From the NCBI RefSeq assembly GCF_902502825.2, contig NZ_LR723673.1, positions 1-64,000 of the forward strand: a stretch of 64,000 nucleotides of DNA, read 5' to 3'. The position numbers and the translations under genes are program-made. The notes beneath the pieces are model-generated. The model was not told the origin of the DNA. It was given only the letters and a program-made list of their open reading frames with translations, and made no database searches. Below, in pieces: positions 61,690 through 64,000 of the stretch (the first letter of the stretch is position 1; every line of letters begins with the position of its first letter). The DNA is from Pseudorhizobium flavum (GTDB lineage: Bacteria; Pseudomonadota; Alphaproteobacteria; Rhizobiales; Rhizobiaceae).

Positions 61690-62394
61690 TCAGATCAGCT
61701 TTCTGCGAATGGCGATAGCGGTCAGATGGGTCAGCGTGTGCACGTCGAAGCGTTTTTTGGTTTCGGCGATCTTGACGCGCACGCTGTTGTATTTGACGCC
61801 CTCAAGGTCCGCTGCTTCCTCCATCGTTTTGCCGACAGCGATCCAGCTAAGATAGGCGGCCCCTTTGGGATCGAGACCAATTGGCTCTTCGACACTCGGG
61901 GTTGGATCAGCGAGATTGATGCGGGCATGAAGCTGCGCGACCGCGGATGCAGCCTCGACAGGGTCGATCTCGCGGTCAATGTCGATTGCAGGCTTCTCCG
62001 AGGCAAGCGTGAACATCGCTATGGAACCGTGTGCGGCCTTGATGGGCACCGTGACGCCGGAACGAATTCCGAAATCGGCCGCATGTGCAAAGAACGAGCG
62101 TTCCGCTGTCGTTAGCCGTGGGTGGTCCTGTTTACCGCTCCAGGTGAAGGCTCGTTTCAAGGACTTGGCGCGTCGAATGACGGGGTCGATCGCAAGATAG
62201 CCTCGTTCGAAATAGCCAGATTGCCACTCTTGACGATAGTTCGAGATTGCGAGCGAACGCCCTGGCTGGATGTTCAGATAGGCATAGCCTGCAAAACCGA
62301 TCTGTTCGGTAAAGATTGCCAGCGCGTCCTTCAAGATGCTTTCGTCGCCAGGAATGGAGGCAAGGTCAGTCAGCTTGGTCAGCCAGTGTCGCAT
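61690..62394 (-). CDS. traR: LuxR-type quorum-sensing activator TraR, separated from its leader by IS256
   Basis: A 234-aa protein, the pTiC58 TraR length. The ligand-domain residues Tyr53, Trp57, Asp70 and Thr129 are at the exact TraR positions, as in TYAYL-like and FTEQIGFAGYAYLNIQ surroundings. The C-terminal LuxR HTH is LSWIAVGKTMEEAADLEGVK, YNSVRVKIAETKKRF. It binds 3-oxo-C8-homoserine lactone and activates tra promoters. IS256 copy 3 begins 7 bp upstream of the ATG, so the native ribosome-binding site is on the far side (near 63823). An in-frame extension into the IS (to GTG 62586) could give a 298-aa fusion. Coding sequence intact; expression doubtful. Confidence 0.93.
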   Translation of the reverse strand: MRHWLTKLTDLASIPGDESILKDALAIFTEQIGFAGYAYLNIQPGRSLAISNYRQEWQSGYFERGYLAIDPVIRRAKSLKRAFTWSGKQDHPRLTTAERSFFAHAADFGIRSGVTVPIKAAHGSIAMFTLASEKPAIDIDREIDPVEAASAVAQLHARINLADPTPSVEEPIGLDPKGAAYLSWIAVGKTMEEAADLEGVKYNSVRVKIAETKKRFDVHTLTHLTAIAIRRKLI

Positions 62395-62401
62395 TCGGAT
62401 C

Positions 62402-63818
62402 GATCGTGTCCCGCCGAGTGGTGTAGCTGGGTGATAGCGAAGCCGCTCGCGAGTGCACCCTCCAAGGTGCTGTAGGGAGCGGGCGGCGTAGCGGTGGTCA
62501 CCAGTGTTTTCCGGTAGGGTCGGGTTGCTTATGACCAACCTGAGGGACACCACCGATGACCGACGACATGATGAACCTGCGCTCACTCGTTGAGAAGAGC
62601 GCCGACGCCGATTTGCTGCGCGAGATGATCGGCTTCGCTGCCGAAAAGCTGATGGCGCTGGAGGTCAGCACGAAGACTGGCGCGGGCTATGGCGAGAAGA
62701 ATAGCTTCCGACTGGCCCAGCGCAACGGCTATCGCGACCGGGACTGGGAGACACGGGCGGGCACCGTTGAGCTGCGCATTCCGAAGCTTCGCACAGGCAG
62801 CTATTTCCCGAGCTTTCTCGAACCACGCCGCATGGCAGAGAAGGCCCTGACGGCAGTTATCCAAGAGGCCTATATCCAAGGCGTCTCGACCCGATCCGTC
62901 GATGACCTCGTTAAGGCCATGGGCATGTCGGGCATCTCCAAGAGCCAGGTATCCCGGCTCTGCGAGGAGATCGACGAGAAGGTGAAGGCCTTCCTCGACA
63001 GGCCCATCGAAGGGGAATGGCCCTACCTTTGGATCGATGCGACCTACCTCAAGGTCCGGCGCGGCGGGCGCATCGTCTCCGTCGCCGTCATCATCGCCGT
63101 CGGCGTCAACACCGACGGTCGACGCGAGGTGCTCGGTATGGAGATCGGCACATCCGAGGCCGAGGCGATCTGGACAGAGTTCCTGCGTAAGCTGACAAGG
63201 CGGGGTCTGTGTGGCGTCAAGCTCGTCGTCTCCGATGCCCATGAGGGCATCAAAGCCGCAGTATCGAAGGTGCTCTCCGCCACCTGGCAGCGATGCCGTG
63301 TCCACTTCATGCGCAATGCTTTGGCCCATGCCGGGAAGAGCGGACGCCGTGTTGTCTCTGCCTTCATCGCCACGGCCTTTGCCCAAGACACGTCAGAGGC
63401 TGCAAGTACCCAATGGCGCAACGTCGCCGACCAGATCAGGCCGAAGGTGCCCAAACTCGCCAGTCTCATGGACAGTGCCGAGCAAGACGTGCTCGCCTAC
63501 ATGACCTTTCCCAAGCAGCATTGGGCCAAACTCCACTCGACAAACCCGATTGAGCGATTGAACGGTGAGATCAAGCGACGCACAGAGGTCGTCGGCATCT
63601 TCCCAAACGACGACGCCATCGTGCGCCTAGTCGGTGCGCTGCTGCTCGAACAGAACGACGAATGGGCCGTCCAGCGGTCCCGCTACATGACACTTGAGAC
63701 AATCGCCACGATGAGCGATGATCCGCTCATCAGCCTGCCAGCCGCAAGCTGATCCATTCCCGGCTCTGTCCGGAAGCACGGCGACCGCCAAAGCTACACC
63801 ACGCCGGGGGACACGATC
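62402..63818 (+). mobile_element. IS256-family element, copy 3, inserted in the traR leader (1417 bp)
   Basis: Flanked by perfect 8-bp direct repeats TTCGGATC (62394-62401 and 63819-63826). Same 1417-bp length and 27-bp ends as copies 1 and 2, and it has the GCCGAAAAG variant of copy 2. The left duplication includes the first base of the traR start codon. Confidence 0.95.
62556..63752 (+). CDS. IS256-family transposase (copy 3)
   Basis: A 398-aa intact transposase identical to copies 1 and 2, with the same catalytic segments. It reads away from traR. Confidence 0.95.
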   Translation: MTDDMMNLRSLVEKSADADLLREMIGFAAEKLMALEVSTKTGAGYGEKNSFRLAQRNGYRDRDWETRAGTVELRIPKLRTGSYFPSFLEPRRMAEKALTAVIQEAYIQGVSTRSVDDLVKAMGMSGISKSQVSRLCEEIDEKVKAFLDRPIEGEWPYLWIDATYLKVRRGGRIVSVAVIIAVGVNTDGRREVLGMEIGTSEAEAIWTEFLRKLTRRGLCGVKLVVSDAHEGIKAAVSKVLSATWQRCRVHFMRNALAHAGKSGRRVVSAFIATAFAQDTSEAASTQWRNVADQIRPKVPKLASLMDSAEQDVLAYMTFPKQHWAKLHSTNPIERLNGEIKRRTEVVGIFPNDDAIVRLVGALLLEQNDEWAVQRSRYMTLETIATMSDDPLISLPAAS

Positions 63819-64000
63819 TTCGGATCTCCTTGTAGATCATCAGGTGGAACAGATCATATGATCCCTTTATGACTCGATGAACTGCAATACGACCTTTGTC
63901 AAAGCTGGTTAGAGGCGCGTGCCAGCCAGCCAGTTAGAAATGCGACACTCGGCATCTCGTCTGGCTCTGACGATCAGCCCCCGATCCGACCGGCTGGGCC
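63819..64000 (-). promoter_or_regulatory. Displaced traR promoter and ribosome-binding site
   Basis: On the minus strand this stretch ends ...CTACAAGGAGATCCGAA, where AAGGAG (63823-63828) would be a perfect ribosome-binding site 7 nt before the traR ATG without the IS. Further upstream are a perfect 12-bp palindrome GATCATATGATC (63852-63863) and a TTGACA hexamer near 63896-63901. It now leads into IS256 instead of traR. Confidence 0.75.

What the first reader, a model, noticed from the sequence alone, without database searches (positions are those of the whole stretch)
61690..63826. IS256 insertion separates the intact quorum-sensing activator traR from its ribosome-binding site
The left target duplication TTCGGATC (62394-62401) touches the first base of the traR ATG. 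On the other side of the 1417-bp IS, the minus strand still carries AAGGAG at the right distance before the duplicated end. The coding sequence keeps all ligand residues (Tyr53, Trp57, Asp70, Thr129), so the insertion is recent in effect. Conjugation of this plasmid should be uncoupled from quorum sensing, either off or driven by IS-borne transcription.
Basis: partly seen in the sequence, partly recalled or inferred. Interest (0 to 1): 0.85.

Follow-up and report, generated by a model that had tools for sequence, protein, structure and literature searches.

The report
Two insertions sever plasmid's transfer switch
A soil-bacterium plasmid has had the control region of its cell-density transfer switch (traR) cut by two separate jumping DNAs, one of which appears to have homed in on a DNA-recombination site that is found in front of traR in a good part of related plasmids.

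Summary
A 1417-bp IS256-family element (62402-63818) with perfect 8-bp duplications separates an intact 234-aa TraR gene from its AAGGAG Shine-Dalgarno sequence. Three copies lie in the window, 99.9-100% identical, each with its own duplication. In the uninterrupted leader of A. tumefaciens F2 this breakpoint lies 5 bp from the XerC arm of a dif-like site, the published target rule of IS1202-family 'dif hunters'. Such a site lies about 100 bp upstream of traR in 24 of 63 traR loci examined, and in close pairs homology usually stops there. My paper searches listed nothing on dif-like sites at traR. Most likely TraR synthesis is lost or much reduced and quorum-dependent transfer is off, while tra box, traM and tra genes remain. 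Leaky translation is not excluded, and a second traR could not be sought because no source genome is held.

The parts
61690..62394 (-). traR, quorum-sensing activator, 234 aa, intact coding sequence
   Evidence: NF010444 437.8 bits; solved TraR 1h0m/1l3l E 8.8e-94; dN/dS 0.11-0.17 against 7 relatives
62394..62401 (.). left 8-bp target duplication TTCGGATC of the IS256; shares one base with the traR ATG
62402..63818 (+). IS256-family insertion sequence, 1417 bp, 27-bp imperfect terminal inverted repeats
   Evidence: further copies at 26452-27868 and 31702-33118
62556..63752 (+). IS256-family transposase, 398 aa, transcribed away from traR
   Evidence: NF033543 349.4 bits; PF00872 416.1 bits
63819..63826 (.). 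right 8-bp target duplication TTCGGATC
63826..63831 (-). stranded traR Shine-Dalgarno sequence AAGGAG
   Evidence: same motif upstream of the uninterrupted traR in A. tumefaciens F2
63819..63896 (-). stranded remainder of the native traR leader (78 bp)
   Evidence: 98.7% identical to the F2 traR leader; 84-91% over 44-63 bp in L002, L004, L006, L008
63892..63896 (.). ACCTT: in F2 the 5 bp next to the XerC arm of the dif-like site; presumed target duplication of the second element (other copy outside the window)
   Evidence: inference
63897..64000 (.). left end (TGTCAAAG...) of an ISRel10-like element of the ISNCY/IS1202 family, running out of the window
   Evidence: 99% to Rhizobium sp. Q54; query 63880-64000 matches 322 plasmid records; ISNCY transposase NF033594 in the Q54 copy
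61378..61686 (+). traM, TraR antiactivator, 102 aa
   Evidence: PF09228 104.5 bits, profile 8-102 of 102
55243..55260 (+). tra box ATGTGCAGATTTGCACGT upstream of traA: the TraR target is kept
   Evidence: 2 mismatches to a consensus recalled from memory; 0.03 expected

Best explanation
The traR leader of a conjugative rhizobial plasmid has been hit by two independent transpositions. An ISRel10-like element of the IS1202 family inserted 5 bp from the XerC arm of a dif-like (Xer) site about 100 bp upstream of traR. An IS256-family element, present in three near-identical copies in the window, inserted between the Shine-Dalgarno sequence and the ATG. Shown: both junctions, the intact TraR and TraM reading frames and a tra box, and the uninterrupted arrangement in relatives. 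Inferred: any traR mRNA from its own leader now carries 1.4 kb of antisense IS256 before the ATG, the ATG has no well-placed Shine-Dalgarno, and TraR falls below the level needed to escape TraM. The tra operon is then not induced and the plasmid is transfer-silent unless TraR is supplied in trans. The second element and the traR-proximal dif-like site are linked by the published target rule of the IS1202 family.
For: Perfect TSDs on 3 of 3 IS256 copies, 99.9-100% identical. Shine-Dalgarno: F2 leader -8.3 kcal/mol at 5 nt; as found -5.9 at 13 nt. No minus-strand promoter-like site in 62380-64000. Breakpoint 63896/63897 falls at the 5-bp position next to the XerC arm in F2. Of 22 ISRel10-like right ends with the sub-terminal repeat, 19 have the XerD arm at exactly +22, i.e. 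5 + 11 + 6 bp (two of the 22 were known beforehand). dif-like site with at most 1 mismatch at -98 to -116 of traR in 24 of 63 loci, against 0.016% of shuffles and 8 of 1502 other windows. Arms match published C58 and M. loti dif (PMC2731167 passages). No plasmid record of 72,556 covers 80% of either junction query.
Against: The far end of the second element, its TSD and the dif-like site itself lie outside the window (no site in 64 kb), so its target is inferred from F2. The Shine-Dalgarno match in the IS end (-5.9) is no weaker, only worse placed, than the native one of several relatives (-5.2 at 6 nt); an in-frame TTG at 62538 has -9.0 at 8 nt. So leaky translation is possible. The native traR promoter is unmapped. 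A second traR was not testable. 38 of 63 traR loci show no dif-like site with at most 2 mismatches, and the motif was drawn from some of the loci counted.
Confidence: 0.72

Rival explanations
1. TraR is still made: transcripts from the IS or from upstream are translated from the Shine-Dalgarno match in the IS end, or from the in-frame TTG at 62538 as an N-terminally extended TraR, so transfer is leaky or no longer tied to the native leader.
For: Frame open for 90 codons upstream of the ATG; TTG 62538 with -9.0 kcal/mol at 8 nt; IS-end match -5.9 at 13 nt.
Against: No promoter-like site toward traR; spacing of 13 nt is poor; 48 added residues would precede the ligand-binding domain; 5% of random 22-mers of the window reach -8.6 or lower without any spacing demand.
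Confidence: 0.2
2. The junctions are assembly artefacts caused by three near-identical IS copies and a widespread element end.
For: Three near-identical 1417-bp copies; the second element's end region matches 322 plasmid records; no plasmid record covers 80% of either junction query.
Against: Each IS256 copy has its own perfect 8-bp TSD, which a mis-join would not give; the second junction falls at the position predicted by the IS1202 target rule.
Confidence: 0.04
3. The site upstream of traR is not a Xer site but a protein-binding operator of the traR promoter with a variable spacer; the ISRel10-like insertion next to it is incidental.
For: The site sits at a near-constant distance (-98 to -116) and in one orientation from traR, as an operator would; most plasmid records that have it have only one, so no excisable module is seen.
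Against: Both arms match published chromosomal dif of C58, Brucella and Mesorhizobium; 19 distinct spacers in 24 sites, and 5 of 6 spacer bases differ between L049 and L059 whose flanks are 95% and 85% alike; homology usually breaks at the site; a dif-hunter element lies at the expected offset.
Confidence: 0.15

Closest known systems
IS256-family insertion sequences
   Same: Transposase above the NF033543 cut-off, imperfect terminal inverted repeats, 8-bp TSD
   Different: Nothing notable; a 97.5% identical full-length copy lies on a plasmid of strain NT-25
ISRel10 and the IS1202 family of dif-site hunters (PMC10132070; abstract, section 19 and passages seen)
   Same: End 5'-TGT; insertion 5 bp from the XerC arm; the Q54 relative has a 473-aa ISNCY transposase, the length given for ISRel10, and an extra gene as ISRel10 does
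   Different: Here the target is the leader of a quorum-sensing gene. That paper called the ISRel10 targets only very loosely dif-like, while allowing that these species may have a different dif consensus; against published rhizobial dif they are near-canonical
traR of Ti plasmids and pAoF64/95 (PMC6341043; abstract and passages seen)
   Same: TraR/TraM pair beside the tra operons; traR may be the last gene of a catabolic operon or stand alone
   Different: Here expression is severed by two insertions; the passages seen do not mention a dif-like site
dif modules / pdif sites of Acinetobacter plasmids (PMC10132070)
   Same: dif-like sites on plasmids, varied spacers, IS1202-family hunters
   Different: 4 of 7 relative plasmid records have a site, three of them one and F2 two: no pair of sites flanking a module is shown

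Membership tests
IS256 family | transposase of the IS256 family model | tested here: met
   NF033543 349.4 bits, cut-off 150
IS256 family | terminal inverted repeats and a TSD of 8-9 bp (TSD length recalled) | tested here: met
   24 of 27 end positions alike; 8-bp TSD on 3 of 3 copies
TraR (LuxR-type activator) | full-length family model and AHL-contact residues | tested here: met
IS1202 family (ISRel10-like) | outer end 5'-TGT and similarity to an element with an ISNCY transposase | tested here: met
   TGTCAAAG at 63897; 99% over 107 bp to the Q54 element
IS1202 family (ISRel10-like) | insertion 5 bp from the XerC arm, judged from the uninterrupted site in a relative | tested here: met
   F2 leader
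IS1202 family (ISRel10-like) | 5-bp TSD on both sides and transposase in this copy | not testable with these tools
   element runs past 64000 and no source record was found
dif/pdif Xer site (in relatives) | two 11-bp arms around a 6-bp spacer resembling the host dif | tested here: met
   against published dif in PMC2731167
dif/pdif Xer site (in relatives) | recombination by XerC/XerD | not testable with these tools
   needs an assay; homology breaks and spacer differences are indirect
dif/pdif Xer site (this window) | presence of the site in the window | tested here: not met
   0 matches with up to 3 mismatches in 64 kb; expected beyond 64000

The most novel reading that the evidence does not exclude
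In many rhizobial quorum-regulated conjugative plasmids a Xer recombination site is built into the traR leader. What lies upstream of traR, often a catabolic or transport operon, can then be exchanged at that site. This would rewire which nutrient signal feeds the conjugation switch, and it makes traR a natural landing place of dif-hunting IS1202-family elements that cut it off.
Probability: 0.3. Interest if true: 0.8.

Novelty: new variant of a known kind. Interest (0 to 1): 0.5.

Why it matters
On its own the IS256 insertion is an ordinary loss of regulation. The wider pattern is less ordinary: a dif-like site at a near-fixed distance upstream of traR, with mostly different DNA beyond it, offers a testable mechanism for how traR on different plasmids comes under different catabolic control. 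It also answers a question left open in the IS1202-family paper, by showing that ISRel10-type elements sit beside sites close to the published rhizobial dif.

Tried and rejected
Search of the source genome for a second traR: no genome is held for the window. Considered and rejected: the IS256 copies forming a composite transposon (each has its own TSD); a TGTTCCACCTGACGATC block as a wider regulatory motif (one search matched it in 9 further genomes, but two of those, L105 and L106, are traR leaders, L101 and L103 look like coding sequence by eye, and the other five were not shown by my motif search); a TTGxxx/TAAAGG promoter for traR (spacing varies among relatives, by eye). An outward promoter in the IS256 end was sought and not found; one weak terminator-like site on the traR strand (63671-63657) is near chance, 2 found against 0.8 expected over both strands. 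A tblastn survey of up to 4 kb upstream of 63 traR genes, with one transposase each of IS256, the Q54 ISNCY element, IS110 and Tn3, found one IS110 match, in L034, over 3 kb away. So these elements at traR are not common in that set; other IS families were not tested. Two 9-base matches to the ISNCY end within 700 bp of traR (L025, L032) were not followed. Wetzel et al. 2015 is not held. The first run of the pairwise script stopped on a formatting error after part of its table and was repeated.

Full report
Observation. The coordinates given are right. The IS is 62402-63818, 1417 bp, flanked by TTCGGATC at 62394-62401 and 63819-63826. traR is on the minus strand, 61690-62394; the first base of its ATG is the first base of the left duplication. 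The IS carries a 398-aa IS256-family transposase on the plus strand. The window holds three copies (26452-27868, 31702-33118, 62402-63818) that differ at one position in one copy, and each has its own perfect 8-bp duplication (GCCAGGTT, ACGACTGG, TTCGGATC). This supports recent, separate transpositions and argues against a mis-assembly.

State of traR and its circuit. TraR is full length and matches the TraR equivalog and the solved TraR 1h0m/1l3l. Y53, W57, D70, W85 and T129 are present. Pairwise dN/dS against seven relatives is 0.11-0.17; this reflects the lineage history and does not date the loss. TraM and TraH match their Pfam families nearly end to end. TraG and TraB pass NCBIfam models. 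TraA has the MobA/MobL relaxase domain and TraF the signal-peptidase domain. traC and traD were not tested. One tra box with two mismatches to a recalled consensus lies upstream of traA at 55243-55260, 0.03 expected by chance. Among the window proteins scanned none matched an AHL synthase or a trb family; not every ORF was scanned.

Native leader. Relatives came from the plasmid collection and from 62 GTDB loci. In A. tumefaciens F2 (L001) the leader runs without interruption into the ATG, and the window's 63819-63896 matches it at 98.7%. Shine-Dalgarno energies: F2 -8.3 kcal/mol at 5 nt; 7 of 11 other relatives -5.2 at 6 nt, the rest -6.0 to -11.7; the window as found -5.9 at 13 nt. In-frame TTG 62538: -9.0 at 8 nt; the three other in-frame starts -1.7 to -5.0; random 22-mers median -4.05, 5% at or below -8.6. 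No sigma-70-like site points toward traR between 62380 and 64000. I conclude that translation from the native start is probably much reduced, not certainly abolished.

Second lesion. Upstream of 63896 the window stops matching F2. The query 63880-64000 matches 322 plasmid records, and 63894-64000 is 99% identical to a Rhizobium sp. Q54 element. That element carries an ISNCY transposase of 473 aa (NF033594, 505 bits) and a second gene, as ISRel10 is said to (PMC10132070, passages). Its end, TGTCAAAG, starts at 63897. In F2 the point of insertion lies between ACCTT and AGGTTGCATAA. The latter is the traR-proximal arm of AGGTTGCATAA-CTTAGT-TTATGGAACTC, a dif-like site. Published dif sites are TAATCGCATAA-GATATA-TTATGGAACTT for the C58 circular chromosome and AAGTCGCATAA-GATAGA-TTATGGAACTT for M. 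loti (PMC2731167, passages; spacing mine). Acinetobacter IS1202-family elements are reported 5 bp from the XerC arm (PMC10132070, abstract), and ISRel10 5 bp from its targets (section 19).

Test of the rule in this group. A right-end pattern with up to one mismatch gave 49 places in 32 of 394 Rhizobiaceae genomes; the reversed control gave 57 by my count of the table, so bare matches are partly chance. 30 of the 49 were fetched as loci; with Q54 L005 and L072, known beforehand, that is 32 ends. Of the 22 with the element's sub-terminal GTCGCA, 19 have the XerD arm at exactly +22, 2 at +23 and 1 has none; without L005 and L072 it is 17 of 20. Of the other 10, one each is at +21, +22 and +23, and 7 have none. 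L073 and L074, chosen by the left end, did not match the right-end pattern: L073 shows no dif-like site there, and L074 has a XerD arm further off. L005 shows CACTA on both sides, a 5-bp TSD; L072 shows no TSD. The 2023 paper called the ISRel10 targets only very loosely dif-like but allowed for a different dif consensus in these species; against published rhizobial dif they are close to canonical.

The site in front of traR. Of 63 loci with a traR start (56 of 62 GTDB loci plus 7 plasmid loci), 20 have TTCCATAA-N6-TTATG without mismatch and 4 with one, at -98 to -116 from the ATG and in one orientation; one more has two mismatches, at -90; 38 have none. Shuffled upstream regions reach one mismatch or less in 0.016%, and 8 of 1502 other windows of the same loci do. 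Only one strand was scored, and the motif was drawn from some of these loci. A scan of 394 genomes with a longer exact pattern gave 12 places against 0 for the reversed control. 6 of the 12 are 100-111 bp upstream of a traR and 6 have no TraR match within the 3-kb locus. At least three of the first six (L143, L146, L149) are loci already in the first set.

Break of homology. Of 24 sites compared pairwise (276 pairs), 36 pairs have leaders at least 75% alike (mean 0.83). Over these the XerC arm is 0.88 alike, the XerD arm 0.90, the spacer 0.34, and the 60 bp beyond the site 0.51, against a shuffled baseline of 0.48. L008 and L011 have identical leaders and unlike DNA beyond the site. L049 and L059 keep both sides (95% and 85%) but share one of six spacer bases. 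Three of 276 pairs keep the DNA beyond the site. At protein level 8 of 276 pairs of neighbouring ORFs are similar, among them L001, L019 and L045 (72-86%), whose adjacent DNA is not alike, so the neighbours are mostly but not wholly different. The largest ORF within 1.5 kb upstream reads in the direction of traR in 18 of 24 and against it in 6. In the annotated records the next upstream gene is an enoyl-CoA hydratase in F2, a 3-keto-5-aminohexanoate cleavage protein in L002 and a glycoside hydrolase in L006, all in traR's direction. In L007, which lacks the site, it is divergent. Four of seven relative plasmid records carry the site, F2 twice, the others once. A two-site module is therefore not shown, and cargo exchange at the site remains a hypothesis.

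Mechanism committed to. Two insertions have cut traR off from its leader: the ISRel10-like element 78 bp above the IS256, and the IS256 at the ribosome-binding site. TraR supply falls, TraM is kept, and the tra box is not activated: transfer off. Inferred steps: reduced mRNA or translation, failure to overcome TraM, order of the two insertions.

Novelty. Searches of the held library for traR with dif/XerC, repABC with dif/XerC, dif sites in rhizobia, pdif in rhizobia, ISRel10 with dif, and IS disruption of traR listed, by title and abstract, no paper on a dif-like site at traR or on this double insertion. Most subscription papers are not held, and Wetzel et al. 2015, the most relevant plasmid comparison, was not available.

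Noticed in passing
237-12618: Catabolic gene set (GMC oxidoreductase, glutathione reductase, FAD-linked oxidase, GST-like protein, acyl-CoA ligase, aldehyde dehydrogenase), 89.7% identical over 38% of the 25-kb query to Aminobacter plasmids of strains MDW-2, SR38 and NyZ550.
   Followed up: partly
13150-20480: Second mobilisation region (mobC, a protein with a weak MobP1 relaxase match, a VirC1/ParA-like protein), 89-91% identical to Sinorhizobium meliloti plasmids; the plasmid may combine two transfer backbones.
   Followed up: no
59695-59786: Rfam Atu_Ti1 sRNA match (93 bits) on the minus strand inside traB.
   Followed up: no
26452-33118: Two inverted IS256 copies around an IS110-like transposase; each copy has its own TSD.
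   Followed up: partly
20867-23935: Tn3-family transposase, 1022 aa.
   Followed up: no
L049 and L059, about -100 of traR: Spacer of the dif-like site differs at 5 of 6 bases although both flanks are 85-95% alike; unexplained fast turnover.
   Followed up: partly
L112, L116, L127, L130, L131, L132, L134: ISRel10-like elements beside sites with spacer GATAGA, the spacer of published M. loti and Brucella chromosome I dif; they may sit at chromosomal dif.
   Followed up: no
L079 (F2 record, 330413-330434): A second dif-like site (one mismatch) on the 402-kb F2 record, with no TraR match nearby.
   Followed up: no
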